From positions 1 through 45,101 of the IMG/VR virus record IMGVR_UViG_3300018481_000012: 45,101 nt of DNA. One strand, 5' to 3'. This stretch comes from a virus. Below the pieces are notes generated by a model. The model was not told where the DNA came from and did no database searches. It saw nothing but the letters and a program-made list of their open reading frames with translations. The translations under genes and the position numbers were made by a program. This document shows positions 1 through 45,101 of this stretch, piece after piece. Position 1 is the first letter of the stretch; each line of letters begins with the position of its first letter.

Positions 1-123
1 AATTTATCTTTCTGCGCCTGGATTTCGGCAGGTTCCATCCCACCACTTATGTAGGCTGGCCCATATTCGGCGAGCGCTCGCATTAACAAATCTTTGGTGT
101 AGCGATGAACATACGGAACGACA
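1..123. repeat. Terminal overlap, left copy
   Basis: This segment is repeated base for base at 44979-45101. The helicase gene reads through it without interruption, so it marks closure of a circular or circularly permuted genome rather than an insertion or attachment site. Confidence 0.95.
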
Positions 124-1085
124 ACCTTTCCACTTACTTCCTCGATGATTTCTTTTACGAGGTTAAATCGGGGGTTCTCCTCAGCGGGTACCAACTCTTG
201 GATTGTCCCATCCTCTTTGATTATGAACCCGGATTGGATTTGAGCCAGCTTTATGTACTTCGTTATAAAGGCGTCGACCGCCACGTTTTCGTTCTCGTTG
301 AGCCATAAAACGAAATCATCTTCCATAGCCTTATATTGTTGGGCTAATTTCGGTGGCAGGATGTATTGCCGCGAAGTGTACATCTTGGGTGGCAAATCTG
401 TCCAGTCTTTCTTGGACGCCCGGAAGATGTACTTTTCAATCGTGGCGGCGAGCAATTCTTCGTTTTGGGTACCGACCACCTTCTTGCCCTTGAAACCACC
501 CATCCGACAGAACGTAGTCTTGAATGGGAAAAATCGACTGCTAACAGCACCTATTGCTCTCATTTGCGCCCAAAGATCATGCGGACCTTGGGTAACGGGC
601 TTGCCAGACAATATACGGGTATATTTCACCCATCCGGCCATCATAAGTGCCGCTTTGGTTTGCTGGCTGTTGTATGTCTTGATCTGAATGCTCTCATCGA
701 ATACCATCACACAATTTCGGTCAGTCACAAATTTGGCGATGTATTCTTGCGTGGCGTTCTTGCGGATCGCTTCGTAATTCACAATTAGAACTGGGGGTTG
801 CTTGTATAACTGATTCATAAATCTGGTGTTGTCGTAATCCGCCCCCGAATTATAAATGTGGGGGTGAACATTGATGCCGTGCTTTTGAATTTCGTCTACC
901 CAGCCCGCTTTGAACGAATTGGGACAGATAACCACCATCCGGGTAGCCATCTTATCTCGCACCATTTCGGTAAATTCGGTAAGTACCGTCAATGTTTTTC
1001 CCAGGCCCATTTCCATGTAGAAGGCATACCCCAGCTTTCCACACGACGCTTCGAGTGCCTTCTTTTGTACTTCTAGTAGTCCCAT
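1..1085 (-). CDS. SNF2-family (SF2) DNA helicase, N-terminal part; continues at 44978-44657
   Basis: The frame starts at ATG 1085, preceded by GAGGG, and runs off the window edge. Joined across the 123-base overlap to 44657-44978 it encodes about 468 aa. The N-terminus has a Q-like motif followed by Walker A GLGKT (about residues 27-31) and motif II as FDES near residue 130. The C-terminal part carries motif VI. This layout matches compact phage SNF2-type helicases, which probably translocate on DNA during replication or recombination. It is the last gene of a leftward operon that also has purZ and the polymerase, and its start overlaps the preceding 57-aa gene by 13 nt. The remodeller-like fold is clear; its specific role is inferred. 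Confidence 0.9.
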   Translation of the reverse strand, partial: MGLLEVQKKALEASCGKLGYAFYMEMGLGKTLTVLTEFTEMVRDKMATRMVVICPNSFKAGWVDEIQKHGINVHPHIYNSGADYDNTRFMNQLYKQPPVLIVNYEAIRKNATQEYIAKFVTDRNCVMVFDESIQIKTYNSQQTKAALMMAGWVKYTRILSGKPVTQGPHDLWAQMRAIGAVSSRFFPFKTTFCRMGGFKGKKVVGTQNEELLAATIEKYIFRASKKDWTDLPPKMYTSRQYILPPKLAQQYKAMEDDFVLWLNENENVAVDAFITKYIKLAQIQSGFIIKEDGTIQELVPAEENPRFNLVKEIIEEVSGKVVVPYVHRYTKDLLMRALAEYGPAYISGGMEPAEIQAQKDK

Positions 1086-1246
1086 TTTTCCCTCATTTTG
1101 AGCGGTGACTCGTTATACTCACGGCGAATGTATACCTCGTTGTGGATGTGTTGCTCCATTCGAGTCATCCAGGTGTCGCCATATACTTCTTCGAGCCACT
1201 TGCAGTCTTCTTCATCCAGATTTAGCGTTACTTTCCTGATCCCCAT
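1073..1246 (-). CDS. Small hypothetical protein, 57 aa
   Basis: ATG at 1246 and TAG at 1073 give 57 residues. It overlaps the upstream mazZ-like gene by 35 nt and the helicase start by 13 nt, as expected for translationally coupled phage genes. The N-terminus (MGIRKVTLNLDEED) looks like the beta strand of a ribbon-helix-helix protein followed by a helix, so a small DNA-binding protein is possible. No family was recognised with confidence. Confidence 0.6.
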   Translation of the reverse strand: MGIRKVTLNLDEEDCKWLEEVYGDTWMTRMEQHIHNEVYIRREYNESPLKMREKWDY

Positions 1247-1535
1247 GTTTCACACCCTCCAAGCGCAGCGCCACGTAAGCAAGAAATGCAAAGTTAGCTA
1301 TATCTGCTAATTCCATAAATGTATTTAAGTCCAATCTATCCTTATGTATTTGACTTTCGAACTCTACTACTTCGTCAACCAGTAAGTCCATAATTTCGTG
1401 AAGGTTAGCTTTGGTCGGCGTTTCCTTCCACGAATTTTTGTCCAATTTAATAATCATCTTTATAAAGAAGTCTTGGAGGAACGAATGGTACGATCGCAAC
1501 GAATCGGGGACTTGAACAATAATGTTAGTCGGCAT
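1212..1535 (-). CDS. mazZ: MazG-like nucleotide pyrophosphohydrolase (MazZ candidate)
   Basis: 107 aa from ATG 1535, with a strong GGAGGGG site upstream. The MazG-type metal motif is visible: DEVVEFE (residues 54-60) and, about 20 residues later, ELAD (75-78) followed by IANFAF. All-alpha NTP pyrophosphatases of this size hydrolyse NTPs to NMP plus pyrophosphate. In 2-aminoadenine phages MazZ converts dGTP to dGMP, the substrate of PurZ. The gene starts within the last 11 nt of purZ, so the two are probably coupled. The fold is well supported. The dGTP specificity is inferred from the neighbour and the known Z pathway; a general housekeeping MazG role cannot be excluded. Confidence 0.8.
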   Translation of the reverse strand: MPTNIIVQVPDSLRSYHSFLQDFFIKMIIKLDKNSWKETPTKANLHEIMDLLVDEVVEFESQIHKDRLDLNTFMELADIANFAFLAYVALRLEGVKHGDQESNAKSG

Positions 1536-2580
1536 CTGACCCCTCCAACATTCGTATATCTGTGATCTTCGACCCTTCTCCAATGATGATCGCGCAGCGT
1601 TTATCCATGTTGTCCATCGCATCTTGGATACCCTCTATTAGCCTCATTTTTTGGCTGTTCTTCTGGAGGTAGTCCAGATGACTAATAAACACAAAATCCG
1701 GGTCGTTGGCGTGGCAGGCATCGTAGAATTGATGCATTGAAAAGTTAGCCACTCGTCGGATTCGCTGCGTCACCGTGGTTAACTCGGGTTCTACCCTTAG
1801 TTCGCCCCAAGTCATTTCAGACTGATCAGAATACCAGTCCCCACTAGAATGACCGTCCACGTTGCCCACTCGAATAGGAAAAGTACGGATTGCCATATAG
1901 GTGCGCGCAAGATGACGCGGAGCAATTCGAGCATCAGCCAATCCCTGCATTACGGTACATTCGCGACTGGTGACTTTGGGGTAGAACTCGGAGTTGATCC
2001 CAAGACTGAACCCCTGCGACACTTCCATGAAATAAGAGTTGCGATCTGGCTTCAATCGATGATCTTGTACCACTACATTCTTCGCTATGCTCCCTAGCGA
2101 ATTGCGGGCGATCGCACTCGGTTCTCTCCGGATTTTCCGGACGAGCGCCTCTCCCGTTCCGCTCCGCGTCCCAGCAACTTCGGCGATCGGCCCTGTTTCT
2201 TCGAGCAGTTTATCTTCATCTGTAATGACCGCGGCATTGGGGTGTACGAATACCCGTAGTTCGGGGTATTTTTCGGCCTCCATTTTGAGAATTTCGCGGT
2301 CAATGATCGCCCCTGCGGATAAATAAACTGGGATGTGGTAATTTTTCAGCGAAAGGTACACGCTGAATGTGGGCAGCTGTTTGAGCACGTGCTTGTCGTC
2401 GCCGTTGTAGAAGGTGTGCCCGCTATTCGGTCCCCCGCTATAAATAGATCCGGAGAAGTAACCAGTCATCGCCGAATCGAGCGCCTGTTGAGCAAGCCAT
2501 GCCGAAAGTGCCCCCTTGCCGGTGGAGCCGAATTGACCGTCCACAACACAGTGGACTCCTTTATTTTTGAACAGGTCCAT
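1525..2580 (-). CDS. purZ: PurZ: phage adenylosuccinate synthetase homologue (2-aminoadenine synthesis)
   Basis: 351 aa, start ATG 2580 behind AGGAAACAG. It is a PurA-family enzyme. The N-terminal loop reads DGQFGSTGKG (residues 14-23), where PurA has GDEGKGK; the catalytic Asp of PurA is therefore replaced by Ser19. This substitution is reported for characterised PurZ enzymes, which ligate aspartate to dGMP rather than IMP. The NSGHT loop (catalytic His55) is kept, as are GTRSGTGEA and a SQGF...VTS segment equivalent to the PurA active-site region. The product would be N6-succino-2-amino-dAMP, which host PurB and kinases turn into dZTP. It lies between a DUF6378 gene and the mazZ-like gene in the replication operon. 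The family call is secure; activity on dGMP is inferred. Confidence 0.93.
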   Translation of the reverse strand: MDLFKNKGVHCVVDGQFGSTGKGALSAWLAQQALDSAMTGYFSGSIYSGGPNSGHTFYNGDDKHVLKQLPTFSVYLSLKNYHIPVYLSAGAIIDREILKMEAEKYPELRVFVHPNAAVITDEDKLLEETGPIAEVAGTRSGTGEALVRKIRREPSAIARNSLGSIAKNVVVQDHRLKPDRNSYFMEVSQGFSLGINSEFYPKVTSRECTVMQGLADARIAPRHLARTYMAIRTFPIRVGNVDGHSSGDWYSDQSEMTWGELRVEPELTTVTQRIRRVANFSMHQFYDACHANDPDFVFISHLDYLQKNSQKMRLIEGIQDAMDNMDKRCAIIIGEGSKITDIRMLEGSDAD

Positions 2581-2884
2581 TGCTCTGTTTCCTTTCGTCA
2601 TGAAGCATGGCAGCAAGTGCAGTGTAACCAGCAGCATCAACGAAATTATCTTCGGAGTATCCGTACACCGAACGAACCATTTTCGTCAGCGCCATCATTT
2701 GAGCCACGTCGAATGGGCGCAGCCTTAGATCGCCTTGGACGGTGAAGGAATGGTTGATATAAGAACTCCACAAGTCGGCAACCATTTGAAATGACCGTTC
2801 GGTATCGCCGTGGTCTTTCAGACGCTGGCGAATAGCATCGCCTGCGTCGAGCAGCACCTTCTCGGATTGACTTAGATCAGTCAT
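2561..2884 (-). CDS. DUF6378-like phage protein
   Basis: 107 aa from ATG 2884 (AAAGG upstream), overlapping the purZ start by 20 nt. The pattern DHGDTERSF...VADLW, then DVAQMMALTKMVR and VDAAGY matches the widespread phage family DUF6378, an all-helical family with MazG-like character. Function is not established. Its position directly before purZ makes a role in nucleotide pools possible, for example trimming of an unwanted purine triphosphate, but no catalytic proof is visible. Confidence 0.7.
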   Translation of the reverse strand: MTDLSQSEKVLLDAGDAIRQRLKDHGDTERSFQMVADLWSSYINHSFTVQGDLRLRPFDVAQMMALTKMVRSVYGYSEDNFVDAAGYTALAAMLHDERKQSNGPVQK

Positions 2885-2886
2885 GT

Positions 2887-3279
2887 TTAACCTTTCTGTG
2901 CGTAGTAGTATTTCACTAGTTGATCGTAGAATGGAACTTCCGTGGTAGTTACCGAGAAGCATTCCCGGTAATCTATTTTCTTAGCTGGTTTGTGGAAGTA
3001 ATAATTCCCCTCACGCCAACCAATCATGACAGGAATTACATGTTTATCGACAGCACCGACATTTTGAATGCGAATTAATTCGACGTACTGTCGCTCAGAA
3101 GGACCGAACTCAGTGGCCCTAATCATCTTCACTTCGGCCATAAACACTGGTAGATCGTAGGGAATGAGGATCACGTCGAATATCCCCACTCCGTATTGAT
3201 CCTCGATGCGGCGAGCATAGCCCCCGCCTTCCACCATGGATTTCACCATGGCGCGCTTAACGTCAGCCTCCGTTTTCAT
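2887..3279 (-). CDS. PD-(D/E)XK nuclease (VRR-NUC / resolvase-like)
   Basis: 130 aa from ATG 3279 with AGGA upstream, overlapping the preceding gene by 17 nt. The core nuclease pattern is visible: GIFDVILI with Asp35, then AEVK (Glu49-Val-Lys51), followed by a helix with Gln64 as in VRR-NUC domains. Such small stand-alone nucleases in phage replication operons often act on branched DNA or flaps. The exact substrate cannot be read from the sequence. Confidence 0.8.
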   Translation of the reverse strand: MKTEADVKRAMVKSMVEGGGYARRIEDQYGVGIFDVILIPYDLPVFMAEVKMIRATEFGPSERQYVELIRIQNVGAVDKHVIPVMIGWREGNYYFHKPAKKIDYRECFSVTTTEVPFYDQLVKYYYAQKG

Positions 3280-3487
3280 CTAGTCCTGCCTGATTGAACC
3301 ACCATTCTGTAACGGTGATCAGTTTGTTCTCCCCGGCACCTTGATCTTCGATGCTGACTGTCTGCGATTTGGGCAGCCAAACGTCACGTAGCTTTCCCAT
3401 CGTGGGGTGAATGAGGTAAGCTTTCGCAGTTGTAACTTCGATGGATGCTTCGATAAGCACGGTAGGGTCACCCTCACGATACGGCAT
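3263..3487 (-). CDS. Conserved small phage protein, 74 aa
   Basis: ATG 3487 is chosen because GGAG lies about 10 nt upstream; an in-frame TTG at 3514 is less likely. The central part has the pattern TTAKAYLIHP...DVWLPKSQTV and ends with VTEWWFNQAGL. This beta-rich arrangement recurs in many phage replication operons without an assigned function. It sits between the polymerase and nuclease genes. Confidence 0.7.
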   Translation of the reverse strand: MPYREGDPTVLIEASIEVTTAKAYLIHPTMGKLRDVWLPKSQTVSIEDQGAGENKLITVTEWWFNQAGLDENGG

Positions 3488-3548
3488 TTTAACACACTCC
3501 TGCTGTCCTGTCAAGTACCCCTATGGGCAAACGTTTATATTTCCTCGA

Positions 3549-5342
3549 CTATTCGTCGTAGCGGTCTAGCTTGTCACCGTAGGAAGCTCGTGCCCAATCC
3601 TTACCGGAACCTAGGCCAAACGGGATGGGTACGTTGAGTTCAAGTTTTTGAGCTACGGATTCGATGGCTTTGATAATTTCATTGGGTGGGTGCCCAGGAT
3701 TGCGCTGCCACAATAAGCTGTCGTGGATAGTAAGTAACATTTGAAAATCATTGGGGTAAGCGTCCTCGTACATGCAGGCTTCCAGGATGCATAACTTAAT
3801 GTGCTCTCCTCCCACGTTCTGGATAATTCGTGAAACAGCACGGTAGGAAAATCTTGGGTCATCCAAATACGCGCGTCGACCCAGTATAGTCTTGACATAT
3901 CCTCGCCTCCGAAATACATGGACGGCGGTGTCCTGGAATTCCTTGATTTTAGGGAAGGCGTCGGTTAGGAAGGCGGAGTGAGCGGCTCGCGCCTTTTCCA
4001 GTGGCCAACGCATGTGCCCCGCGAGGGTGGGAGGGGACATCATGGTTAACATCCCCATCGCCATTCGCTTAGCAGTTTCACGGTCTAGTCCCAAGACCTG
4101 GGAAGCTCGATCGTGAATGTCCATTGTCCCGCTTCGGTATCCATCGGTGAGAACAGGGTCGCCCGAATAGTGAGTGAAGAGTCGAGGTTCCTGTTGCTTT
4201 GCGTCTGCCTCTTCAATAACGAATCCTTCGTCTGGGACCACCAAACGTCTAACAACTCTTCCAACGTCGATGTTTCGTTTTGGGAACGCTTGGAGGTTTG
4301 GTTCGCTGCACGAGAATCTGACACCTGCGACTCCATAATCGTCCGATTTGGACTGGTTGAGGATGGGGTGAACCCGCCCATTAACATTGTGGGTGTCAAT
4401 AAGTGGGGTAATAAAGCTGTCGCGTGCCTTTTCAAGTCGTCTGACTGAAAGGATAGCCTGCCCGATGTCGTTAGTTTCCAGCCACTTTTCCGTGAACGAA
4501 AACGCGTTGTTATCCGTTCGCGCGAATTTTTCATCGGTGTAACCATTCATTCGGTAGAGTTGCTCGACTGCTTTGGGGGATCGCGCATTAAATCCGGGAA
4601 CAAAGACCTTACTAGACTCAGCAATTGCCCCGTTAACATCGCTGACAACTTTACCGGCGTATTCGGGATCGATTTTGAGACCCCGATTATGGATACGCGC
4701 GACATAGGGTATAAGGTTGCACTCCAATCTCCAGCTTCGTCGCAAGTCATCCGCATCCAAAATCCGCTGCTGTGCATGATATAACTCCAAAGTTGAAATG
4801 CCGTCGCCTGTGGCGTAATCGACGACTACGGGGTGGTCGCCTTCTAATCGCCAGAACTTACCCATCTGCTTTCGGTCTGGTAATCCGCCGAAACGCCTGG
4901 CCAACTCGGCGTAGACTTCAGCCCCTTTCTTGGGAGCGACACCGCGCCGAATGCAACATTCCTCTAGCCCATAACCCTGATTTATATCGCTGATGATCGC
5001 TTCATTGATCATCGTATCTTCTAGTGGGTGGCGAGGAACAATACCATGGCGATAGCAAATACGGAGATCAAAACCGATATTGTGCCCAACAGTACGTAAA
5101 TGAAGCCGTCCCCGGTCCGCAAATGCACGCGCGAGTTCTTGCTCAAAATCTTCCGCATTGGGTATGTTTCCTCCTGCTTCGTGGCGAACTGGGATGTAGA
5201 TCGAAAACTCACGATTGGTGATTACATAACCGCAAATTTTGTCCTTCACCGTCAGGCCGGTGGTTTCGGTATCGAATGCTATGGTATCGGGGTGGACACG
5301 AACAATGTCCAGCGCCAACTGTGGGTTAATGCACTGCTTCAC
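3549..5342 (-). CDS. PolA-family DNA polymerase with 3'-5' exonuclease (DpoZ candidate)
   Basis: 597 aa, GTG start at 5342 with GAGGAAG upstream and a GTGA overlap with the previous gene. The N-terminal proofreading domain has exo I FDTETTG (Asp24, Glu26), exo II NIGFD (88-92) and exo III YATGD (176-180). The polymerase domain has motif A with Asp380 (EADAKQQEPR), motif B starting RETAK (421-425) and motif C IHDS (His540-Asp541). No 5'-3' exonuclease domain is present. The O-helix reads RETAKRMAMGMLT, so the usual aromatic residues (Phe667 and Tyr671 in Taq numbering) are Met429 and Thr433. Together with purZ this suggests a polymerase of the DpoZ type adapted to 2-aminoadenine. Polymerase identity is certain; the DpoZ assignment is inferred. 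Confidence 0.92.
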   Translation of the reverse strand: MKQCINPQLALDIVRVHPDTIAFDTETTGLTVKDKICGYVITNREFSIYIPVRHEAGGNIPNAEDFEQELARAFADRGRLHLRTVGHNIGFDLRICYRHGIVPRHPLEDTMINEAIISDINQGYGLEECCIRRGVAPKKGAEVYAELARRFGGLPDRKQMGKFWRLEGDHPVVVDYATGDGISTLELYHAQQRILDADDLRRSWRLECNLIPYVARIHNRGLKIDPEYAGKVVSDVNGAIAESSKVFVPGFNARSPKAVEQLYRMNGYTDEKFARTDNNAFSFTEKWLETNDIGQAILSVRRLEKARDSFITPLIDTHNVNGRVHPILNQSKSDDYGVAGVRFSCSEPNLQAFPKRNIDVGRVVRRLVVPDEGFVIEEADAKQQEPRLFTHYSGDPVLTDGYRSGTMDIHDRASQVLGLDRETAKRMAMGMLTMMSPPTLAGHMRWPLEKARAAHSAFLTDAFPKIKEFQDTAVHVFRRRGYVKTILGRRAYLDDPRFSYRAVSRIIQNVGGEHIKLCILEACMYEDAYPNDFQMLLTIHDSLLWQRNPGHPPNEIIKAIESVAQKLELNVPIPFGLGSGKDWARASYGDKLDRYDE

Positions 5343-5572: not shown

Positions 5573-6405
5573 CAGAACTTACCGGCTGTCTCTTCGTTGA
5601 TCGTCTTGCCGGTGCTACTCTTGTCAAAGACGGGTTCATCCTCCGTCTCGTCGTTTGCTATCCAGCCACCCTGTCCAAATCGGTTGTACAATTCGGCGCA
5701 CATGTCAGCTTGCTCTTTGTCGGCGAATCCCAACCCCGTGTAGGCGAAATTGAAGTAGGGACCCTCAGCGCCCTTTTGCTGAACCGAGCCGATTGAGTAC
5801 ACCTGAACATAGTGGGGCACCGGCTTGGAATCAATCCGCGACAGCAACTGCTGCATCGGCTTGACGCTGGAGCGGGTATTGATAATCAGCGAGGGGCTGA
5901 GTTCCGGGAAGTCCACCAAGAACCACATCATATTGTAGGTGAGACTTGCCGCTGGGGGCGAATTGTTATCCCCCGGAATTGAAGTGCCGAACTGGTCCAG
6001 TCTGGATTCGGCTACCGTATCCTTCGTGAGGTAGACTACCTCCTTGGGCGACCCTTTGGGCTTCACTCGGAACTCCGCATTCGGCGGGTCCCAGTGGATT
6101 CCGTCCATCGCGCGGGCCAAGATACCCCGATCGTCATTTCGCGGTGCCCAGAGCACGTAGGACTTGCGAATTAGGAGCGGGATGGCCTTGAGCGCTGGCC
6201 CAAGGTTTTGTTGCGCGACGGTGTGCCAGAACTGTCCCGCTTTGGCTTCCGGGAAGTCCTGTAGCTCCGGCGAAATGGCCTGGATCAGTTTGATCCGGGG
6301 TATGATTCGGTCGGAGGAATCGACGTTGCCGATGCTGGCCTTCTGGAAGTGTCGCAGGTGATCAGGAACCTGGGAGTTGGTGTTTGCTACGTCAGTGCTA
6401 CTCAT
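5572..6405 (-). CDS. Conserved phage protein of the replication operon, 277 aa
   Basis: ATG 6405 with AAAGGA upstream. The central part has IIPRIKLIQAISPE, then a Gly-Gln-Phe-Trp segment and SYVLWAPR; the C-terminus is acidic and Gly-rich (about residues 240-277). The layout, a beta-rich core plus an acidic disordered tail, resembles single-stranded DNA-binding proteins of phages, and no other SSB is visible in the genome. This is only a structural analogy and the family could not be named. Confidence 0.65.
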   Translation of the reverse strand: MSSTDVANTNSQVPDHLRHFQKASIGNVDSSDRIIPRIKLIQAISPELQDFPEAKAGQFWHTVAQQNLGPALKAIPLLIRKSYVLWAPRNDDRGILARAMDGIHWDPPNAEFRVKPKGSPKEVVYLTKDTVAESRLDQFGTSIPGDNNSPPAASLTYNMMWFLVDFPELSPSLIINTRSSVKPMQQLLSRIDSKPVPHYVQVYSIGSVQQKGAEGPYFNFAYTGLGFADKEQADMCAELYNRFGQGGWIANDETEDEPVFDKSSTGKTINEETAGKF

Positions 6406-6709
6406 GTTCGATAGTCCTTTGTGCGTTGAAGCCTGTTTGCTCGTTGTGGTGTCGTATTAAGTGACAGTTAGCGCAGAGCACGTCACACTTTTCAAGTTCT
6501 TTTTTCAAGCGGTTTATGCCATTGCGACAGTGCATGTTTATAACGTACTTTTCTTTACCGTCGCGGTGATGGAATTGCAACACAATCGGATTGGATATGC
6601 CGCAATCTACGCACTTACTGTTACGCCGCACAGTTTCTAGATATTTTCTAGCCTCTATGCGGCGATTGGTTCGCCACGCCTTGTTAGTTTCTGGTAGTCC
6701 CTTTGCCAT
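6398..6709 (-). CDS. HNH endonuclease
   Basis: 103 aa from ATG 6709, which overlaps the upstream stop (TGATG); a GTG at 6712 is the alternative. Zinc-binding pairs CVDC (33-36) and CANC (79-82) flank FHHRDG (His47-His48), and the C-terminal HLIRHH completes a zinc-ribbon HNH nuclease. The stretch is visibly more AT-rich than its neighbours and breaks the replication operon, as free-standing homing endonucleases often do. Confidence 0.85.
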   Translation of the reverse strand: MAKGLPETNKAWRTNRRIEARKYLETVRRNSKCVDCGISNPIVLQFHHRDGKEKYVINMHCRNGINRLKKELEKCDVLCANCHLIRHHNEQTGFNAQRTIEHE

Positions 6710-7200
6710 CACTTGGCTTTTGTGATCGAAGTGTAGGTCATTATATTGGTGGCAAAAGTTGGAGCGGGGAGTTCAGTCCCCTCGTTGTTTAGCTCCTTGG
6801 CGAGCGCCCCGAGAGTTTGGGCGTTCACAGTCTCTTGAATGACTCCTCCGTGACCATTCCCGCGCAGCCATTCGAACCCGGACTGCTTGTCGGGCATAGA
6901 AGCGGACCAGCGCGTCCCAAGGGATACCCTGCCGACTCCTTCGATGGTGATGGTTCTGATCCCCGCGTTCCGCATCGCATCGGGAACCAACTCGCGGGAC
7001 ATGCGCTCTTCGATCTGAGCGAGTGCCTCGCGGGATTCCTTGATGAGGCCAGTCACTTGGCGGAGTTTGTCGTAGTGTTTGATCACTTGGACGTGATCGT
7101 TGGTGGACACTACTTCGTTAGTCTCGTTCCTGATCTCTTCGGCGAGAACCGAGAGTCTTCCACACACAGCTGTTAGGTCGAACAGAGTCTTCATATGCAT
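6709..7200 (-). CDS. Hypothetical protein with N-terminal helical region, 163 aa
   Basis: First gene behind the promoter at 7244-7272. Start is ATG 7200 or ATG 7194. Residues 1-75 are helical and charged (two helices resembling a coiled coil). They are followed by a beta section (ITIEGVGRVSLG), a GFEWLRGNG turn, and a helix ending before NIMTYTSI. This pattern is common in phage replication modules, but no function is known. Confidence 0.7.
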   Translation of the reverse strand: MHMKTLFDLTAVCGRLSVLAEEIRNETNEVVSTNDHVQVIKHYDKLRQVTGLIKESREALAQIEERMSRELVPDAMRNAGIRTITIEGVGRVSLGTRWSASMPDKQSGFEWLRGNGHGGVIQETVNAQTLGALAKELNNEGTELPAPTFATNIMTYTSITKAK

Positions 7201-7346: not shown

Positions 7347-7787
7347 TTAGGCTGCTGCGGTTTGGGGATTCTCCGCCGCCTTCTCTGCCGCCTTCGCCGC
7401 CGCCCCTGTGAGGGTGGGTTTCGGCAGATTGATCTCGACTTCGACTCCATCCAAACCAACGGCCTTGCCGTTCTTGCGAACGAACGTCGCCAGCATGTTT
7501 CGAAGCGTCATGCGAGCGCGGCCTTCGGCACCGTGCCGCTTCTCAGCGACCTGGCCCTTGTAGTGCTCCACCTTCTCCTGCGCAACGCCGTTCTTCTCGC
7601 ACAGTTCGAAGAATGCATCGAACGAGAAGTTGCCGTCCCGAACGCATTGCTCCTTGATGAACACCGCGAGAGGGTCGTCGCCGCCGTTCTTGTATCGACC
7701 GGCGTACTTCGACGGCACGATGGACTTGGTGGTCTTCGTTTCGACATTGCCCTGTAGGGCTTCCGTCATGTCAGCTGAGTCACTCAT
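7347..7787 (-). CDS. Paralogue A of the NGV/GRxRMTxR family, 146 aa
   Basis: ATG 7787 with AGAGGAG upstream, directly behind its own promoter. The core contains FFELCEKNGV and EGRARMTLRNML, matching NGVD...GRFRMTGR in three other proteins of this genome (10860-11432, 15957-16601, 18179-18631). It is the most divergent member, lacking the SRWTNR segment. The C-terminus is an Ala-rich helix (about residues 128-146). The conserved basic helix suggests nucleic-acid binding, but no family with known function was recognised. Confidence 0.8.
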   Translation of the reverse strand: MSDSADMTEALQGNVETKTTKSIVPSKYAGRYKNGGDDPLAVFIKEQCVRDGNFSFDAFFELCEKNGVAQEKVEHYKGQVAEKRHGAEGRARMTLRNMLATFVRKNGKAVGLDGVEVEINLPKPTLTGAAAKAAEKAAENPQTAAA

Positions 7788-7871: not shown

Positions 7872-10409
7872 CTATACGCGTAAACGGGATGATAAGCTAC
7901 CCTTCCACGGCGAGGCACCTATAAGTGGCGATTCGTTCTTACCGAAGTCATCTTCCACGAATACGAACCTGGGTTCCAGCGTGACGCCGATAGATAGCCC
8001 GAACATTTCGGCTGTGGTGCCTATCTTGTACTTAAATCGATAGAATTTATTGTTGCCCGATGTCCAAACCTCGATAAGCCCAGCCCCTGTAAATTCATCG
8101 AAGACGTGGCGCGGCTGAACAAAGCGAATACGCATAGACTCACAGGTATCGGCAACTCGCTTGTTAAATTCGTGCATAGTGAACGGTGCCGAAAGGTCTA
8201 GGTCTTCCCAGATGCGTCCTTCCTCAATGATATTCTTCGCCACGCGGCGAGCGTAGGACATATTGGACTCGACGATGTGGCTATCAGTTCCGCTGGATAG
8301 AGATATATTTTCGATGGCGTGGCGGCTAACTGGCATCGTATTAAATATGTGCATGAAGTGCTCTTTCACATCCATTCGGCGAATGAATACTAAGAACTCG
8401 TCAAAGAATGGCTTAAGAGTGACGGCCCAATTACGGAAGTCTACATCATTCATCCCCTTAAACTCTTTGTCATAAGTCTTGAGATAGAACAGCGCGCGGT
8501 CCTGCATGTTCTGCTGGCCGATGTTCATGTCGAATTTGTTGGACGCAAATATAACTCGAGCAAAAATTCGATAGGTGCGCGCCGACATAAACTTCTCCGC
8601 CCCGCCGAGGCGATCGGCTCGGATCAATTTCTTAATTTCGTCCGTGCTGCTCTCACTGTAGAATTTTGCTTCGTCAATGAATACGAACATCTTGTTGATA
8701 AATGGCTCCACAGAGAACGCACCTTCCAATATTTTGGGTGAGGCGGATCCCCATTGGTTTTGAAACAACTGCTCCAGGAATATATTCCCAAAGAATGACT
8801 TCCCGACTCCTTGCCCGCCAACAAAGACAGGAGCCACCTGCTGCTTCTGGCCAGGATTCTGTACAGTCCAAGCGATCCACTGTTTGAGCCATGCTATTTG
8901 CTCCTTATTATCCTGTGTAAGATAGGCGAATAACTGATCCATCATAGAAGTACACTTAGTGATCAACGTTTCGTCGATGTGTTGGGTTGGTAAAATGGGC
9001 CAGCCCCGCCACGTATTGAATATGGTCAAGGTACCGGATTCGCTATCTTGGTCGTCCGGGATAATTCCTCCCGATCTGGATAGTCTAAAAATCGCGCCTG
9101 GCTGGAAGTCCGGATATAAGTCTCGACCGCCAATACGCCGTCGCAATGGAGAAGATTCAAACATCTTAAACACCGGCCGCATCTTGCCAGCCACTTCCAT
9201 AAGGTCGTTGCGGTGGCGACGGTCGAGTGCGGCTCCATCGTGGACGAAGTTGGAAATACTATAGAACCGGTCACGGTCAATGTATAAGTCATCCGTTTCG
9301 TCGTAAATGTAACGATCCGCCATCCTAGTAAGGGGTGATACATCGACACCTGGCATAAAAACTGTCCGCAGAGCGAGCATGGATTCTGTACCAATCTCGG
9401 CTTCAAGCGCGGGCCATCCAGGTATCTTAGCATCGGGGTTATTCTCCAACTTCTTCAACGCATCGCGGAAAATACGCTTCCGCATCCATACTTCTTTATC
9501 GCCCATTTCGGCGCAGAGAAATTCCAGCATAGATTCGGCAGTTTCTGGCGTGCCGATTGGACAGAAGGTACCTTGCCCTATCCCCTCATTCTCGTTGATC
9601 CCTATACTTTCACGTACGAGGCGAGCGAGCCACCCCGCTACTTTGCCAGCGAATTGCTGCCGGGTTCCTTCAATCCAATGAGGTTGCATTATATAAAGAA
9701 ACGTGCCGAATGCGATACCAGTGATTAAATTGGAATAAGACGTTTTGCGCGGCGTAGTCGCTGCAATTTCGCCCACAAATGAAGCGGGGTTGCCCCCCTC
9801 GGCATACCATACACTAATGTCATAAGCACCCGATTTTTCTTTGTGGATGTATATCGACCCCGGCATGACGGTCTGTCGAGATTCTTTGACCGCATTGGGA
9901 CTTGTTTCTGGTATCGGTCCCATCGAACGCAGCTCGCTCTTAAACCGCTTCCCTTCGATCTTAAATTCATTGGGTTCGAACTCCTTTAACGTGTCGTAGT
10001 TGTTAAGATCCAATTCGTTCAGCTGCACCATTATGTGAGAAGGCACGCCCTTCGACATGCGCCCAAATGCGAACCGTGTGTCTATGCTGAGGAATTTGAA
10101 CGCCGATATAATGGCTCGGTTATAGCGCGGGTCTTCTGCGTCTATGTCTACGTCGAGCCAACCGAATTGCAGATTGAAGCCCAGATTGAGAACCCGCATG
10201 TCGGGATTATCAATCCATTCTTGAAGATTGGTATCTCTGAATTTTTTCTTGTGCCAGTCAGAAGTAAATGGATTTTTGCCGGACATCTGCAGGAAAACTG
10301 CGCCGACTTGGATAAAATTATTGTTTATTTGAGCGGTTATCGATCTCTGTTGGTTAATTGTCTTTTCGTCGACGTCATTTAATGCAAATCCGCCCTTGAT
10401 GGCTTCCAT
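7872..10409 (-). CDS. Primase-helicase: PrimPol domain plus SF3/D5-type ATPase
   Basis: 845 aa from ATG 10409, with a GGGGAGGGG tract upstream. The N-terminal half has archaeo-eukaryotic primase motifs: LDVDID (residues 85-90) as motif I and PSH (123-125) as motif II. The C-terminal half has Walker A GGQGVGKS (531-538), Walker B MFVFIDE (574-580) and sensor-like FASNKFD, as in D5/NrS-1-type helicases. It would prime and unwind DNA at the fork with the PolA-family polymerase. It has its own promoter and a long structured leader. PrimPol-type proteins are also known from the 2-aminoadenine cyanophage S-2L. Confidence 0.88.
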   Translation of the reverse strand: MEAIKGGFALNDVDEKTINQQRSITAQINNNFIQVGAVFLQMSGKNPFTSDWHKKKFRDTNLQEWIDNPDMRVLNLGFNLQFGWLDVDIDAEDPRYNRAIISAFKFLSIDTRFAFGRMSKGVPSHIMVQLNELDLNNYDTLKEFEPNEFKIEGKRFKSELRSMGPIPETSPNAVKESRQTVMPGSIYIHKEKSGAYDISVWYAEGGNPASFVGEIAATTPRKTSYSNLITGIAFGTFLYIMQPHWIEGTRQQFAGKVAGWLARLVRESIGINENEGIGQGTFCPIGTPETAESMLEFLCAEMGDKEVWMRKRIFRDALKKLENNPDAKIPGWPALEAEIGTESMLALRTVFMPGVDVSPLTRMADRYIYDETDDLYIDRDRFYSISNFVHDGAALDRRHRNDLMEVAGKMRPVFKMFESSPLRRRIGGRDLYPDFQPGAIFRLSRSGGIIPDDQDSESGTLTIFNTWRGWPILPTQHIDETLITKCTSMMDQLFAYLTQDNKEQIAWLKQWIAWTVQNPGQKQQVAPVFVGGQGVGKSFFGNIFLEQLFQNQWGSASPKILEGAFSVEPFINKMFVFIDEAKFYSESSTDEIKKLIRADRLGGAEKFMSARTYRIFARVIFASNKFDMNIGQQNMQDRALFYLKTYDKEFKGMNDVDFRNWAVTLKPFFDEFLVFIRRMDVKEHFMHIFNTMPVSRHAIENISLSSGTDSHIVESNMSYARRVAKNIIEEGRIWEDLDLSAPFTMHEFNKRVADTCESMRIRFVQPRHVFDEFTGAGLIEVWTSGNNKFYRFKYKIGTTAEMFGLSIGVTLEPRFVFVEDDFGKNESPLIGASPWKGSLSSRLRV

Positions 10410-10859: not shown

Positions 10860-11432
10860 TCACTCGGTGGGCTGCCCAGCCCCGCGCGCAGGCGGCCACA
10901 GGGGCTTAGGTTTGTATTTGTTTACTGCCTCTTCGACCCACTCTGTGCTCAGCTGATAATGATCGGGCATGGTGCCCTTAGGCATCAAGATAACCCCATC
11001 TTGATCCCGCACCTTGCGCGCCAGCAAGTTTCGCCCCGTCATGCGAAGGCGTCCTTGCCACCCTTTATTGGTGCGGTTGTACTTGGTAAGATGGACTCCA
11101 TTCGCCGCGCAGATCGCCTCGAATAGCTCAATATTCGTACCCGCTTTATTGGAGCAGAGATTATTGAGCAATTCGGCTAATTCGTCACCGCAATGGGTGG
11201 GGTGCCCATATTCGGAGTACTTCGCGCGGTAACGGTTGGTTATAATAGAACCTGGGCCTTTCGGTCTCGCCACTTCTAGTTCGTGTTCATCGGCGGCAGC
11301 ATCCCATTCTGCATTCCACCGGTTGAAATCCAGGTCGTCTTCTTCCATGTAGGGGCATTCCCCCGCCATGTACCCTTCTTTATAAGCGATAGCTCCGTCA
11401 GTGGGAACTCCGTTTATGGATGTTTCTCTCAT
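10860..11432 (-). CDS. Paralogue B of the NGV/GRxRMTxR family, 190 aa
   Basis: ATG 11432, with GGAG 8 nt upstream. The C-terminal half has the family core: FEAICAANGVHLTKYNRTNK, then GWQGRLRMTGRNLLARKV, before a variable tail. The N-terminal 60 residues are acidic and unique to this member. The preceding block (NRYRAKYSEYG) corresponds to the KY-containing block of paralogues C and D. It has its own promoter. Function unknown; see the family finding. Confidence 0.8.
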   Translation of the reverse strand: MRETSINGVPTDGAIAYKEGYMAGECPYMEEDDLDFNRWNAEWDAAADEHELEVARPKGPGSIITNRYRAKYSEYGHPTHCGDELAELLNNLCSNKAGTNIELFEAICAANGVHLTKYNRTNKGWQGRLRMTGRNLLARKVRDQDGVILMPKGTMPDHYQLSTEWVEEAVNKYKPKPLWPPARGAGQPTE

Positions 11433-15956: not shown

Positions 15957-16601
15957 ATGGCTAAGCGCAAGGCAAAGCAGAAGACGGCGGCAGAGATCGA
16001 GGCGATCGAAGCTGATCGGGTTGCGGCGCACGAACCGGTAGTTGGTCCGAACGTCCAAACCAGCGTGTTCCCTGACAAGGTGGCGCTCGAGGATGTGAGC
16101 GAAATGACAACCGAACAGGCGGAAGCTCACGCCCGCGTGGAAGAGACGTTCAGCCCCGCCAAGGCCGAGCTGCAGGAATTGGAGACGGCGGAGCGGGAAG
16201 AAGAGGCGGCGCTTGCCGAGGTAGAAGAGGAGGCCAAGCTTCCCAATTCGGTGGTGGCGGAGAAATTCAAGCTGAAGTACATCGAAAATGCAAAGGTGCT
16301 CGGGGTGGCGGGCAAGGCGGCCAAACGGTCGAACTGGGACTGGCTCGCCCAGGAAATCGCGGCAGAGTGCCTCAAGGAGAAGGAGAAGATCGACATCGCC
16401 GAATTCCAGGACCTGTTGGAACTGAACGGCGTGGACTATTCGCGCTGGACCAACCGAAATAAAGGGTGGGAAGGCAGGTTCAGAATGACTGGGCGGGTTG
16501 CGCTACAGAAGGTAGTGGCCAACAATCGGAGGTTGGTGAAGAAGATGAGCGAGAGCATTCCGCCCGAGGCGTGGGTGGAGCGGTTCAAGACGAAAGCCTA
16601 A
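15957..16601 (+). CDS. Paralogue C of the NGV/GRxRMTxR family, 214 aa
   Basis: ATG 15957 with AGGAG upstream. It is the only plus-strand gene inside the left arm and has its own promoter and intrinsic terminator. Residues 1-95 are a Lys/Ala/Glu-rich charged extension. The rest holds the full family core: RSNWDWLAQEIAAEC, then NGVDYSRWTNRNKGWEGR, FRMTGRVALQKVV and PPEAWVERF. It is closest to paralogue D (18179-18631). The basic conserved core suggests nucleic-acid binding; no function is known. Confidence 0.88.
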   Translation: MAKRKAKQKTAAEIEAIEADRVAAHEPVVGPNVQTSVFPDKVALEDVSEMTTEQAEAHARVEETFSPAKAELQELETAEREEEAALAEVEEEAKLPNSVVAEKFKLKYIENAKVLGVAGKAAKRSNWDWLAQEIAAECLKEKEKIDIAEFQDLLELNGVDYSRWTNRNKGWEGRFRMTGRVALQKVVANNRRLVKKMSESIPPEAWVERFKTKA

Positions 16602-18178: not shown

Positions 18179-18631
18179 TCAGTTCTGGAACTTCGCCACC
18201 CACTCGGCGGGTGCCATGAACTCGTCGCCATCCACGATCAGGAAGCCCTGGGCCGCCACGACCCGCTGGAGGGCGAGCCGCCCTGTCATCCGGAAGCGCC
18301 CTTCCCAGCCCTTGCTCCGGTTCGTCCAGCGGCTCCAGTCCACGCCGTTCGCCGTGAGGATCGCCTCGAACTTGGCGATGTCGATCTTCCCGTCCGGCCC
18401 GTTGCACTCGCCTGCGAGGCTCTTGGCCAGCCAGTCCCAAGTCGAGCGCTGCGCCACCTTGCTCGCGTGGCCGTTCTCTCTGGCGCGGTCCGCGTACTTC
18501 TGCTTGTAGGCGTTCTTCACCACGGACCGCTTCCGGTCCAAGTCCGCCGCGACGTCGGGATGGAGAGCCGGGCCATATTCGGCATCCATCGGATCCGCGT
18601 GCAGGGCCGGGCCATATTCGTCGTTCATCAT
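18179..18631 (-). CDS. Paralogue D of the NGV/GRxRMTxR family, 150 aa
   Basis: The start is placed at the ATG-ATG pair near 18631, behind GAACGGAGC; longer in-frame extension lacks a ribosome-binding site. The N-terminus repeats DEYGPALHAD and AEYGPALHPD in tandem. The core RSTWDWLAKSLAGEC, NGVDWSRWTNRSKGWEGR, FRMTGRLALQRVV is nearly identical to paralogue C. It is the first gene of the leftward arm, next to the divergent control region, so it is probably expressed very early and strongly. Confidence 0.88.
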   Translation of the reverse strand: MMNDEYGPALHADPMDAEYGPALHPDVAADLDRKRSVVKNAYKQKYADRARENGHASKVAQRSTWDWLAKSLAGECNGPDGKIDIAKFEAILTANGVDWSRWTNRSKGWEGRFRMTGRLALQRVVAAQGFLIVDGDEFMAPAEWVAKFQN

Positions 18632-18705
18632 CGTCGTGCTCCGTTCGCTCCGGCTGGGGCCGCCTCCCGCCTCGGGAGGCCGATCGCCGCCGCCATCGCT
18701 CGAGT

Positions 18706-18734
18706 ACAATACCACGCCGCGATTGCGCGGTCCA
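18706..18734 (-). promoter_or_regulatory. Leftward promoter for paralogue D (weaker match)
   Basis: TGGACC (18734-18729), 17-nt spacer and TATTGT (18711-18706). Both boxes match only four of six bases, but spacing and GC-rich spacer equal those of the other promoters. A strong GCCTCCCG/CGGGAGGC hairpin (18680-18662) lies in the leader. Confidence 0.55.
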
Positions 18735-18757
18735 TGTGGTGCGATGTCGCATGATCG

Positions 18758-18772
18758 GTCCTATCCTAGGAC
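18758..18772. promoter_or_regulatory. Inverted repeat in the divergent control region
   Basis: GTCCTA-TCC-TAGGAC forms a perfect 6-bp inverted repeat. Another GTCCTA follows at about 18777. It may be an operator upstream of the leftward promoter. Confidence 0.45.
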
Positions 18773-30196: not shown

Positions 30197-32473
30197 ATGG
30201 CAGACGGACTTACCCCTCATTTAGGATTGACGAAGCCAGACGTTGGCGGCTCGGACGATACTTGGGGCGAGAAGCTAAATTCTAATTTCGACATATTAGA
30301 CACTGTTATTGGTGAAGGAGGGGGAGGAACAGGCGGAACAGGTCCAGCGGGACCTGCGGGACCAGCGGGACCACAAGGACCGATGGGGCCAACAGGACCT
30401 GCAGGACCACAAGGATCTACGGGAGCACCGGGATCACCGGGAGCACCGGGAGCAACAGGACCAGCGGGACCAATAGGACCAACAGGGTCACCGGGATCAC
30501 CGGGGGCAACAGGACCACAAGGACCGCAGGGAACACCTGGGACAACAGGATTAACGGGAGAACAAGGACCGCCGGGATCACCGGGATCACCGGGATTGGA
30601 AGGACCAACAGGACCAGCGGGACCTCAGGGCGAACCAGGGGCAACAGGACCGGAAGGACCATCGGGACCGGAAGGATCAGAGGGGCCACAAGGGCCAGCG
30701 GGGGTAGCAGGACCAACAGGACCGGAAGGGCCAGAAGGACCGGAAGGGCCAGCGGGCGCGGATAGCGTTGTTCCGGGTCCAGCAGGACCCGCAGGACCAA
30801 CAGGACCGGCTGGTGCAGATAGCACAGTACCGGGTCCGACAGGGCCGGAAGGACCGGAAGGACCGGCGGGACCAACAGGACCGGCGGGACCGCAAGGCGA
30901 GCAGGGTATTCCTGGTCCTTCAGGTAGCGGTGCTGGCGATGTTACTGGTCCTGCGAGCGCTGTTGCGGATCGCATTGCAGTATACAGCGGAACTACCGGC
31001 AAGGTCATTAAGGATGGCGGCGCGCTTATAGCCGATCTTGCTACGGCGGCGTCCGTTTCCGGCAAGCAAAATTCCGACGCTACGTTGACCGCTCTTGCTG
31101 GGTTGGATGCCACGGCGGGATTGGTCGAACAGACGGGGGCCGACGCTTTCGCTAAACGCGCTTTGGGCGTTGGCGCGACAACATCTGTGCCAACACGCGC
31201 AGATGCCGACGCGCGTTATGCACCTATTTCCGTTACCGGCAACGTCGCAGGTCCGGCCAGCGCGGTAAATAATCGCATTGCCGTATTCAACGGAACGACT
31301 GGCAAGATAATTCAGGACGGCGGCAGCGCGATTGCCGATCTAGCAACCACGGCGTCTATTCCTCTACCCGCGACTGTTGCGCCTCTTATGGACGGCGTTG
31401 CGGCTGTTGGCACCACTACTAAGTACGCGCGGGAAGATCACAAGCATCCGAGCGATACCGCCAAACTCGACACGTCTCATGCGGGAACTGGCGGCACGGC
31501 TCACGCTAACGTAATTGCGGCGGGCGCTGCCGGTTTCATGACGGGCGCGGATAAGACGAAGCTCGATGGCATCGCGACAGGTGCCAATAATTACGTTCAT
31601 CCGACCGGCGACGGCAATTTGCATGTCCCGGCGAACAGCACCACGAATGCAAACGAATTTCTGAAGGCTGGCGGAACCGCTGGCGTCTACACTTGGGAGC
31701 TTGTAACCAAGACAGACGTTGGTTTGTCGAACGTCGATAATACCAGCGATGCGCTCAAGCCAATTTCGACGGCTACACAAACAGCGCTGAATGGCAAGGC
31801 TCCGACCGTTCATACTCATATTTGGACTGATATTACCGACAAGCCAACTACATTTACGCCTACCGCACATAATCATGTCGCATCGGATGTAAACAGCGGC
31901 ACCTTCGACATCGCGCGCATTCCGGTCGCGACCAGCGGTACTTCTAATACAACACAAGTAGTGCGCGCCGATGATAGTCGCCTGAGCGATGCCCGAACGC
32001 CGATAACGCATAATCATACTGTCGCACAAATTACTGACATTGCGTCGACCTATGCCCCTATTGTGCATTCGCACACGGCGGCGAATATAACTGACTTCCA
32101 GGAAGCGGTTGAGGACCGCATCGGATCTACTATTATTGCTGGCACCAACATCACGGTAAGCTATGATGATGGCACCGGCAAGGTGACGATCAACTCTACG
32201 GGAGGCGGCGGCGGAGCGTCAATCACGATCAGCGATACTCCTCCGGGGTCTCCGGTAGCAGGATCACTCTGGTGGGAAAGCGATAGCGGCGCGCTTTTTA
32301 TCTACTTCAACGATGGTACGTCATCGCAGTGGGTTAGCGCCGGGGTTACTGGACCCCAAGGTGCCGCCGGTCCGACTGATTGGAACTTGATCACCAACAA
32401 GCCAACTTGGACGACTTCAACCTTAGCCCCGTCCGGTGGTATTGATGGCGATGTTTGGTATCAGGTAGTGTAA
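30197..32473 (+). CDS. Collagen-like tail fibre
   Basis: 758 aa from ATG 30197. The N-terminal anchor [25 protein letters not shown] (11-35) recurs in a second fibre (34587-35768). Residues 45-243 are Gly-X-Y triplets, a collagen-like rod. Then come two copies of a repeat with RIAV[YF]-GTTGK and DGG-IADLAT (about 254-290 and 352-385), phage-fibre repeats such as [12 protein letters not shown], and a C-terminal collagen-like piece ([13 protein letters not shown]). It probably forms a trimeric fibre for host binding. Confidence 0.88.
30329..30925 (+). repeat. Collagen-like triplet repeat
   Basis: About 66 Gly-X-Y codon triplets, mainly GGA-CCA-GCG/ACA type, in one uninterrupted frame except for short inserts such as ADSVV and ADSTV. 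The DNA is purine-rich and highly repetitive, so recombination-driven length change is likely. Confidence 0.9.
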
Positions 32474-43556: not shown

Positions 43557-44691
43557 TGAAGAACTTAAAAAATTCTATCAGCAACATTTTGATAAACTTC
43601 CGTGGTACGGAAAGTTAGGAACTGCTGCCGCCGATGTTGCCCGAACTTTCACGGATGACCTTACATTTGGTTTAGCTGATCGCGGAATGAGTATGATGAC
43701 TGGTCGTAACGAACCAGCCATTACTAAAGCTATTCGCGCTAGAATGGGTCATGCTGATTTACCCGGAGCGTTCGGTGCAGGGATGCTCACACCTTCTGCT
43801 GTCCCCAGTATGGTTGGCCGCGTTGGTGGGGGTCCTGCTACCCGACACGCCGTCGGCCTGCTCGGCGGGGCCGGTGAGGGTGCGTTGCAAGGAGCGGCAT
43901 ATGCTGCTGGTCATGGCGAGGACATGAAACAGGGGGCTACAACTGGGGCTATTGCTGCGCCACTTGCACACGGCTTAACCGCTGGGTTGAACAAGGCTAC
44001 TAACACTATTTCAAATAAAATTAAGGGGGTTAGCGACAAACTTCCGCCTCCCCACATTGGAAATGTAAAGGGGTACGAAGCAGAATTTACTCCTCCCCCC
44101 GGATATACCGATGATTTCACAAAATCACGTGAAGGTCACATGACCTTCTCTAAGGATAAAAATGATTGGGTAAGCAGACCCGGAACCGAAAATTATCCCC
44201 GTTATTGGGAATACCCCGATACACACGAAATGACCCCTAAGGCGATGATAGAATCAGCAGCCCAAGCAGCGCATGGGGCTGGGGGTAAACCCCATCATTA
44301 TATGCTTGAATTTCAAAGTTTGAAAGATGACATAGACGCTAATGCTGTTAGAGATTTCTCCCCCGAAGAATATAAAGTCCTTGAGAAAGCATTAAGTCCT
44401 ACTCACGGCGACTTCTTACCCCATATGTTGGCCGATGCGGCAGAAAGACCGTTGGCTGGGATGAAACTTAGCGCTGGCATTCCACCAGAGATTCCAATGG
44501 CTACACCCATCATGAAAGCAGCAGATTGGGCAGTTGGTAAAAATATGATGGAACCAATAGAAGCTGCGCGACGTTACGCTATTGACTTACCAGAAATCCC
44601 TAGCGTTCTTTCGCCAATCCTGCAAGGTCGATTATCTAAGGGGATGCGACGTGGGATTATTTCGAGCATTGATAATGAAGAGAATTTTTAA
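43549..44691 (+). CDS. Glycine-rich ejection protein, paralogue 2, 380 aa
   Basis: ATG 43549 overlaps the previous gene by 8 nt. LPWYGKLGTAAADVARTF and SAVPSMVGRVGGGP match the preceding protein, followed by its own Gly/Ala-rich region. The C-terminal half is different (YPRYWEYPDTHEMTPKAMIE). It is the last gene of the rightward arm and overlaps the helicase end tail to tail by 35 nt. Confidence 0.72.
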   Translation: MTDEELKKFYQQHFDKLPWYGKLGTAAADVARTFTDDLTFGLADRGMSMMTGRNEPAITKAIRARMGHADLPGAFGAGMLTPSAVPSMVGRVGGGPATRHAVGLLGGAGEGALQGAAYAAGHGEDMKQGATTGAIAAPLAHGLTAGLNKATNTISNKIKGVSDKLPPPHIGNVKGYEAEFTPPPGYTDDFTKSREGHMTFSKDKNDWVSRPGTENYPRYWEYPDTHEMTPKAMIESAAQAAHGAGGKPHHYMLEFQSLKDDIDANAVRDFSPEEYKVLEKALSPTHGDFLPHMLADAAERPLAGMKLSAGIPPEIPMATPIMKAADWAVGKNMMEPIEAARRYAIDLPEIPSVLSPILQGRLSKGMRRGIISSIDNEENF

Positions 44692-45101
44692 AGTATGAAA
44701 ATACGGCCTGTGCTATGCTCTCTTTGGCCTGCAATGCTTGCGTTATGCGACGATCTAACGCTGTCCCCCAAACATCTACATACAGGCAACTTTCCGCTGT
44801 CTGCCCATGGCGGTGAATACGATCCTCGATCTGGCTTCTGTCGTCCAGAGAGTACGAATTTTCTGCGAATATCATTGTGCTGCACAGATCGTCCGACAGT
44901 GGACCGCCTAGAAGTGTGTGACCGTATTTGGCCGCGCGACTTTGCGCTAGAATCACCCGACACCCGCTGTATTTATTGAATTTATCTTTCTGCGCCTGGA
45001 TTTCGGCAGGTTCCATCCCACCACTTATGTAGGCTGGCCCATATTCGGCGAGCGCTCGCATTAACAAATCTTTGGTGTAGCGATGAACATACGGAACGAC
45101 A
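44657..45101 (-). CDS. SNF2-family DNA helicase, C-terminal part (gene continues at 1-1085)
   Basis: This is the C-terminal end of the helicase whose N-terminus lies at 1-1085; positions 44979-45101 repeat 1-123. It contains RecA-like domain 2 with YISGGMEPAE, a GGPLSDDLCS segment and motif VI SQIEDRIHRHGQ, whose arginines contact ATP. The stop is at 44657, 35 nt inside the convergent last gene of the rightward arm. Confidence 0.9.
   Translation of the reverse strand, partial: VVPYVHRYTKDLLMRALAEYGPAYISGGMEPAEIQAQKDKFNKYSGCRVILAQSRAAKYGHTLLGGPLSDDLCSTMIFAENSYSLDDRSQIEDRIHRHGQTAESCLYVDVWGTALDRRITQALQAKESIAQAVFSYFKNSLHYQCSK
44979..45101. repeat. Terminal overlap, right copy
   Basis: Exact copy of 1-123, marking closure of the genome at a unique length of 44,978 bp. 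Confidence 0.95.

What the first reader, a model, noticed from the sequence alone, without database searches (positions are those of the whole stretch)
1212..5342. Gene set predicting a 2-aminoadenine (Z) genome: PurZ, MazZ-like and PolA-family polymerase
The PurA homologue has Ser in place of the catalytic Asp of the GDEGKGK loop, the change reported for PurZ. A MazG-type enzyme starts within its last codons, and a proofreading PolA-type polymerase lies in the same operon. Known Z phages use PurZ with MazZ, and many add DpoZ. This would extend Z-DNA to a podovirus-like phage with an SU10-type capsid and P22-like portal.
Basis: partly seen in the sequence, partly recalled or inferred. Interest (0 to 1): 0.88.

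Follow-up and report, generated by a model that had tools for sequence, protein, structure and literature searches.

The report
Phage gene set for Z-DNA

Summary
Window 1525-2580(-) encodes a PurZ (GQFGSTGKG, Ser for the catalytic Asp); a tree places it inside PurZ, away from PurZ0 and PurA. A MazZ-2-type enzyme follows; a proofreading PolA precedes. A 123-bp terminal repeat shows the record is complete. The closest isolate, Ochrobactrum podophage vB_OspP_OH (PurZ 53%), was listed in 2021 as a Z-cluster phage, so Z genes in podophages are not new. About 60 IMG/VR loci share the operon. Departures from described Z phages: (1) DatZ, the dATPase of the known triad, is absent from this complete genome and several complete relatives. 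(2) The polymerase lacks two DpoZ insertions and has Thr/Ser where DpoZ has Phe (57/57 in the clade; 80/80 purZ-less viral PolAs have Tyr). (3) In the window's 35-member subclade the ATP-contacting PurZ residues (N-F-x-N/Q) are S/T-H-x-D, with the Asp of GTP-using PurA, suggesting reversion to a guanine-nucleotide donor. (4) DUF6378 occurs in all seven PurZ isolates tested without a DUF5664-DUF550 fusion and none of four with it: a candidate fourth Z-cluster gene. Z in the DNA is inferred, not shown.

The parts
1525..2580 (-). purZ, 351 aa: 2-amino-2'-deoxyadenylosuccinate synthetase lineage; Ser19 for the catalytic Asp; donor motif S300-H301-L302-D303
   Evidence: PHROG 1211 E=8e-53; PDB 6fm1 and 7odx; alignment A1; tree; donor motif
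1212..1535 (-). mazZ, 107 aa: MazG-like pyrophosphohydrolase of the MazZ-2 type (E55xxE58...E75xxD78, K-L-x-x-N-x-x-K)
   Evidence: A5 invariants; profile match to phiVC8/ZP6 MazZ-2 prob 96.9%, E=2e-10 against 9.5% for MazZ-1; AlphaFold model, best PDB matches 2p06 and MazG-related 2yxh, weak
3549..5342 (-). polA, 597 aa: family A polymerase with 3'-5' exonuclease; Thr at the phiVC8 F459 / E. coli Y766 position
   Evidence: PF00476 E=5e-41, PF01612 E=4e-8; alignment A4 with exo and pol catalytic residues invariant
2561..2884 (-). DUF6378 protein, 107 aa, overlaps the purZ start; candidate nucleotide-pool enzyme of the Z cluster
   Evidence: PF19905 E=7e-20; same family in phiVC8-like phages and S-2L; all-helical AlphaFold model pLDDT 88, no confident PDB match
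2887..3279 (-). 130 aa protein, homologue of OH p30 (annotated putative nuclease)
   Evidence: blastp to OH p30 32%; no Pfam match; operon-conserved
3263..3487 (-). small operon ORF, phrog_8389, unknown function
   Evidence: conserved position
1073..1246 (-). 57 aa ORF between mazZ and helicase; lies where relatives carry a small gene and datZ
   Evidence: read from the sequence; datZ present at this place in OH and absent here
1..1085 (-). N-terminal three quarters of the helicase gene (OH p36 homologue), runs across the join of the circular record
   Evidence: 49% identity to OH helicase; joined ORF
44657..45101 (-). C-terminal part of the same helicase gene, plus terminal repeat
   Evidence: 56% identity to OH helicase residues 347-479
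1..123 (.). direct terminal repeat, copy 1 (identical to 44979-45101): record complete, 44,978 bp circular or terminally redundant
44979..45101 (.). direct terminal repeat, copy 2
7872..10409 (-). primase-type protein (OH primase-polymerase homologue), second possible polymerase
   Evidence: 51% identity to OH p22; PF19263, PF05272

Best explanation
The phage makes 2-aminoadenine (Z) DNA. MazZ-2 cleaves dGTP to dGMP. PurZ joins dGMP and aspartate to N6-succino-2-amino-dAMP, which host adenylosuccinate lyase and kinases turn into dZTP. The PolA of the same operon copies the genome with dZTP in place of dATP. Shown here: the genes, their family placement, operon conservation, catalytic residues and purifying selection. 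Inferred: the chemistry in this phage and the presence of Z in virion DNA. This lineage departs from the described scheme. It has no DatZ, so exclusion of dATP must rest on the polymerase (Thr in place of the Tyr/Phe of the O helix) and possibly on the DUF6378 protein, for which the dATP/dGTP diphosphohydrolase DUF5664 is the suggested functional counterpart. In the 35-member subclade the donor site of PurZ has changed from the ATP type to one resembling GTP-using PurA, so PurZ probably uses a guanine nucleotide (GTP) as phosphate donor; that step is a prediction from three co-changed residues. The confidence given is for the core claim (a Z-DNA pathway); about 0.6 for the donor switch and 0.65 for a Z preference of PolA.
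For: PurZ family and Ser; tree placement inside PurZ; dGMP pocket residues G18, S19, N52, T138, Q189, V238, R275 and the T268-T271 loop kept, only Ala50 to Ser; MazZ-2 profile match; operon polA-x-nuclease-DUF6378-purZ-mazZ in about 60 loci; purifying selection; exonuclease and polymerase catalytic residues intact; Thr/Ser at the F459 position in 57/57 clade polymerases, Tyr in 80/80 viral PolAs from loci with no purZ within the 6 kb flanks held, Phe in 15 DpoZ-type references; DatZ absent by profile from the complete genome and from five other terminally repeated relatives, while found in OH and nine related records; S/T-H-x-D in exactly the 35 sequences of one clade with SH-aLRT 99, aligned to E. 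coli PurA T-K331-L-D333; DUF6378 in PurZ phages with separate MazZ and not in fusion-type or PurZ0 phages.
Against: No isolate of this subclade and no nucleoside analysis exist; the OH paper passages found describe no such test of its DNA. Without DatZ the A-to-Z replacement might be partial. MazZ fold matches are weak by E-value. DatZ is also missing in some relatives with the ATP-type motif and present in some with the S-H-x-D motif, so loss and motif are not tightly linked. The polymerase could derive from the DpoZ-2 lineage (AU p 0.19 and 0.69).
Confidence: 0.82

Rival explanations
1. The enzyme is a PurA-type adenylosuccinate synthetase (IMP to succino-AMP) that boosts ordinary adenine supply; the DNA is normal.
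For: Member of the PurA superfamily (PF00709); donor motif S-H-L-D resembles PurA.
Against: Ser at the catalytic Asp position as in all PurZ; nested deep in PurZ with SH-aLRT 99; dGMP pocket and the Val that blocks a 2'-OH kept; next to MazZ-2.
Confidence: 0.03
2. PurZ still uses ATP/dATP; S-H-x-D is a tolerated variation without a donor switch.
For: The protein is nested in ATP-type PurZ; His may replace the residue that stacks on the base; no structure with ligand.
Against: All three contact positions changed together and are fixed in 35 sequences; Asp would be badly placed for adenine, and in E. coli PurA D333N changes the donor from GTP to XTP (Kang 1994, title cited in PMC7952092).
Confidence: 0.3
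3. Because DatZ is missing, the phage DNA is a mixture of A and Z.
For: In S-2L DatZ gives an unselective PrimPol an indirect specificity (PMC8342488, PMC8065100); DatZ is absent here.
Against: This lineage has a PolA with an altered O helix, and DUF6378 may remove dATP.
Confidence: 0.25
4. PolA is an accessory repair enzyme without Z preference, and the primase-polymerase replicates the genome.
For: Lacks DpoZ insertions 2 and 3 and F459; a primase-polymerase homologue is present, and S-2L relies on PrimPol alone.
Against: polA is operon-linked to purZ in nearly every locus; in our sample the Thr/Ser change occurs only in loci of the purZ-bearing kind.
Confidence: 0.2

Closest known systems
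Ochrobactrum phage vB_OspP_OH (MT028492), Z-cluster phage listed by Czernecki et al. 2021
   Same: Same operon order and same virion type; PurZ 53%, PolA 60%, capsid 71% identical; MazZ-2 and DUF6378 present; Ser at the polymerase position
   Different: OH has DatZ (p35) and the ATP-type motif N-F-M-N in PurZ; the window lacks DatZ and has S-H-L-D
Vibrio phage phiVC8 Z system (PurZ, MazZ-2, DatZ, DpoZ)
   Same: PurZ (36%), MazZ-2, and a DUF6378 gene near the end of the cluster
   Different: phiVC8 has DatZ and a DpoZ with F459 and three insertions; window PolA has Thr and lacks insertions 2 and 3
Cyanophage S-2L datZ-mazZ-purZ triad
   Same: PurZ homologue with nearly the same dGMP pocket; a DUF6378 gene elsewhere in the genome
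   Different: S-2L uses MazZ-1 and PrimPol and has DatZ
PurZ0 of Gordonia and Arthrobacter phages; archaeal/bacterial PurA
   Same: Asp at the donor-base position
   Different: Phylogenetically the window is PurZ, not PurZ0 or PurA; no DutZ-type dUTPase in the window

Membership tests
PurZ | Ser in place of the catalytic Asp of the GDEGKGK loop | tested here: met
   S19, aligned with S-2L S23
PurZ | Groups with PurZ, apart from PurZ0 and PurA | tested here: met
   SH-aLRT 99 clade within PurZ
PurZ | dGMP base pocket and residue blocking a 2'-OH | tested here: met
   All but A50 (Ser here) kept, V238 kept
PurZ, ATP-using type | Donor motif N-F-x-N/Q (separates ATP-type PurZ from PurZ0; not part of what separates PurZ from PurA) | tested here: not met
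   S-H-L-D; hence filed as PurZ lineage with a variant donor site
PurZ | Makes dSMP from dGMP and aspartate | not testable with these tools
   needs an enzyme assay
MazZ-2 | Four conserved acidic residues E-x-x-E / E-x-x-D | tested here: met
   E55, E58, E75, D78 invariant in 35 sequences
MazZ-2 | Sequence kinship to phiVC8-type MazZ-2 rather than MazZ-1 | tested here: met
   96.9% against 9.5%
MazZ-2 | dGTP diphosphohydrolase activity | not testable with these tools
   needs an enzyme assay
DpoZ (phiVC8-like) | Phe at position 459, shared by both DpoZ clades | tested here: not met
   Thr
DpoZ (phiVC8-like) | Insertions 1-3 | tested here: not met
   Insertion 1 alignable, 2 absent (0 of 7 residues), 3 absent (3 of 19)
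DpoZ (phiVC8-like) | Same clade as DpoZ-2 | tested here: inconclusive
   Separate group, but AU p 0.19 and 0.69
Z-cluster (datZ-mazZ-purZ triad) | DatZ next to mazZ and purZ | tested here: not met
   No DatZ profile match in the complete record

The most novel reading that the evidence does not exclude
A widespread uncultured phage clade runs a Z genome by a different route: a PurZ that reverted from ATP to GTP as donor, a third kind of Z-preferring PolA built on Tyr-to-Thr in the O helix, no DatZ, and DUF6378 as a new dATP-removing enzyme.
Probability: 0.3. Interest if true: 0.8.

Novelty: new variant of a known kind. Interest (0 to 1): 0.62.

Why it matters
Z-DNA is a rare case of a genome-wide change of one Watson-Crick pair. 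How a polymerase tells Z from A is unsolved for DpoZ; a natural family in which the one residue shared by known DpoZ is Thr or Ser instead of Phe offers a direct test. Loss of DatZ asks whether dATP removal is dispensable. An apparent return of PurZ to a PurA-like donor site would run against a one-way path from GTP-using PurA/PurZ0 to ATP-using PurZ. DUF6378 gains a first functional setting.

Tried and rejected
PurA or PurZ0 assignment: rejected by tree and pocket residues. MazZ-1 assignment: rejected. DUF6378 as a MazG or DUF5664 relative: profile comparison gave nothing and the fold search no confident match, so only a functional analogy is proposed. A gene that replaces DatZ in DatZ-less genomes: family clustering over 18 genomes found no clear candidate. 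Coupling of DatZ loss with the Asp motif: only 3 independent pairs, no signal. Proof that the polymerase arose apart from DpoZ-2: not achieved. My first reading that all three DpoZ insertions are missing was corrected to two. phiJL001 polymerase: record not held.
Full report
Setting. The window is one IMG/VR virus record. Its first and last 123 bases are identical and a helicase gene reads through the join, so the genome is complete (44,978 bp). Early genes run leftward from about 18 kb, virion genes rightward; capsid and portal are SU10-type (PF17236, PF23899). Gene by gene it matches Ochrobactrum podophage vB_OspP_OH.

The observation. On the minus strand lie polA (3549-5342), a small ORF, a putative nuclease, a DUF6378 gene, purZ (1525-2580) and mazZ (1212-1535), tightly packed or overlapping. 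PurZ hits the PHROG PurZ family (E=8e-53) and, among solved structures, phiVC8 and S-2L PurZ first. The PurZ residues named as lining the dGMP base are kept apart from Ala50 to Ser (with residue roles from PMC8342488). In a tree with PurA, PurZ0 and 85 PurZ-type sequences the window falls in a well supported PurZ subgroup with OH. An IMG/VR scan found 410 PurZ-type stretches; the best 80 loci are 47-77% identical to the window, and nearly all that are long enough carry the same operon. The genes are under purifying selection.

MazZ. Pfam gives only a sub-threshold MazG-superfamily match, but a 35-member family profile matches phiVC8/ZP6 MazZ-2 (E=2e-10) and not MazZ-1; four acidic residues of the E-x-x-E / E-x-x-D type are invariant. 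The AlphaFold model (pLDDT 84) resembles MazG-related proteins weakly.

DatZ. The S-2L paper describes datZ, mazZ and purZ as co-conserved, and a 2026 study says PurZ phages mostly encode DatZ (PMC12884076). A DatZ profile finds it beside mazZ in OH and in nine of the 29 related IMG/VR records searched whole, but not in the window nor in relatives L025, L027, L030, L089 and L092, which also bear terminal repeats. Parsimony needs at least seven changes on the tree. No replacing gene was found. The window also lacks DUF5664 and dUTPase-type genes.

Polymerase. Catalytic residues of both domains are intact. In phiVC8 numbering (checked at R440, L455, F459, G548, S583) the window clade lacks insertions 2 and 3, and has Thr, in two members Ser, at 459. 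That site is Phe in the DpoZ-type references and Tyr in 80 of 80 viral PolAs taken from loci without purZ in the flanks held; one PurZ0 phage, Spocter, keeps Tyr. PMC8599892 names F459 as the mutation shared by both DpoZ clades. In E. coli Klenow Y766S opens the active site at the cost of fidelity (PMC3121766). So the clade has a different change at the same place. Its deep relation to DpoZ-2 is unresolved; I do not file it as DpoZ.

Donor site. In S-2L PurZ N305, F306 and Q308 (N297 in phiVC8) contact the adenine of (d)ATP. OH and basal relatives keep N-F-x-N. In exactly 35 sequences, the clade holding the window, these are S/T-H-x-D, aligned with T-K331-L-D333 of E. coli PurA, whose D333N changes GTP to XTP use (Kang 1994, title read). 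From my own knowledge PurZ0 uses GTP (Tong 2023, not held here). The simplest reading is a return to a guanine-nucleotide donor within ATP-type PurZ. It is a prediction.

DUF6378. A Pfam search over whole records finds it in OH, phiVC8, ZP6, K300, BUCT555, Bm1 and S-2L, not in SH-Ab 15497, PMBT28, K21lambda1 and Kokobel2, which have a DUF5664-DUF550-type fusion, nor in four PurZ0 phages (two of the seven score under the curated cut-off). DUF5664 cleaves dATP and dGTP (PMC12884076). The mutual exclusion suggests a comparable role. The family is not specific to Z phages: a protein search with the window sequence finds 267 phage records, most of them Mycobacterium phages. Sequence and fold comparison do not show common descent with DUF5664.

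Verdict. A real Z-genome gene set, from a known kind of phage, with departures that can be tested at the bench.

Noticed in passing
window 2561-2884: DUF6378 gene in the Z operon; the family also sits near the end of the Z cluster in phiVC8-like phages and occurs in S-2L, but is missing from phages with a DUF5664-DUF550 fusion and from four PurZ0 phages.
   Followed up: partly
L137 and L138 (contigs of bacterial MAGs): PurZ homologues with a PolA that also has Thr at the F459 position, in L137 in a different local context; possibly an independent change.
   Followed up: no
L091 and L127: PurZ with Asp at the donor position but otherwise N-F or T-F, outside the 35-member clade; separate partial changes of the donor motif.
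   Followed up: no
PMC12884076 (paper, results section): The text states that PurZ0 and PurZ prefer ATP and GTP 'respectively', against the paper's own introduction and the S-2L work (PurZ uses ATP); probably swapped words.
   Followed up: partly
window 7347-7787, 10860-11432, 15957-16601, 18182-18760: Several ORFs match the same family of OH proteins (p04, p15, p23): a repeated paralogous family of unknown function.
   Followed up: no
window 30197-32473 and 34587-35768: Two virion-region ORFs share their first 40 residues with OH baseplate protein p45; 33129-34310 and 34587-35768 fall in one family.
   Followed up: no
window 6398-6712: Small HNH endonuclease-like gene in the early operon (phrog_2255, E=9e-23).
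   Followed up: no
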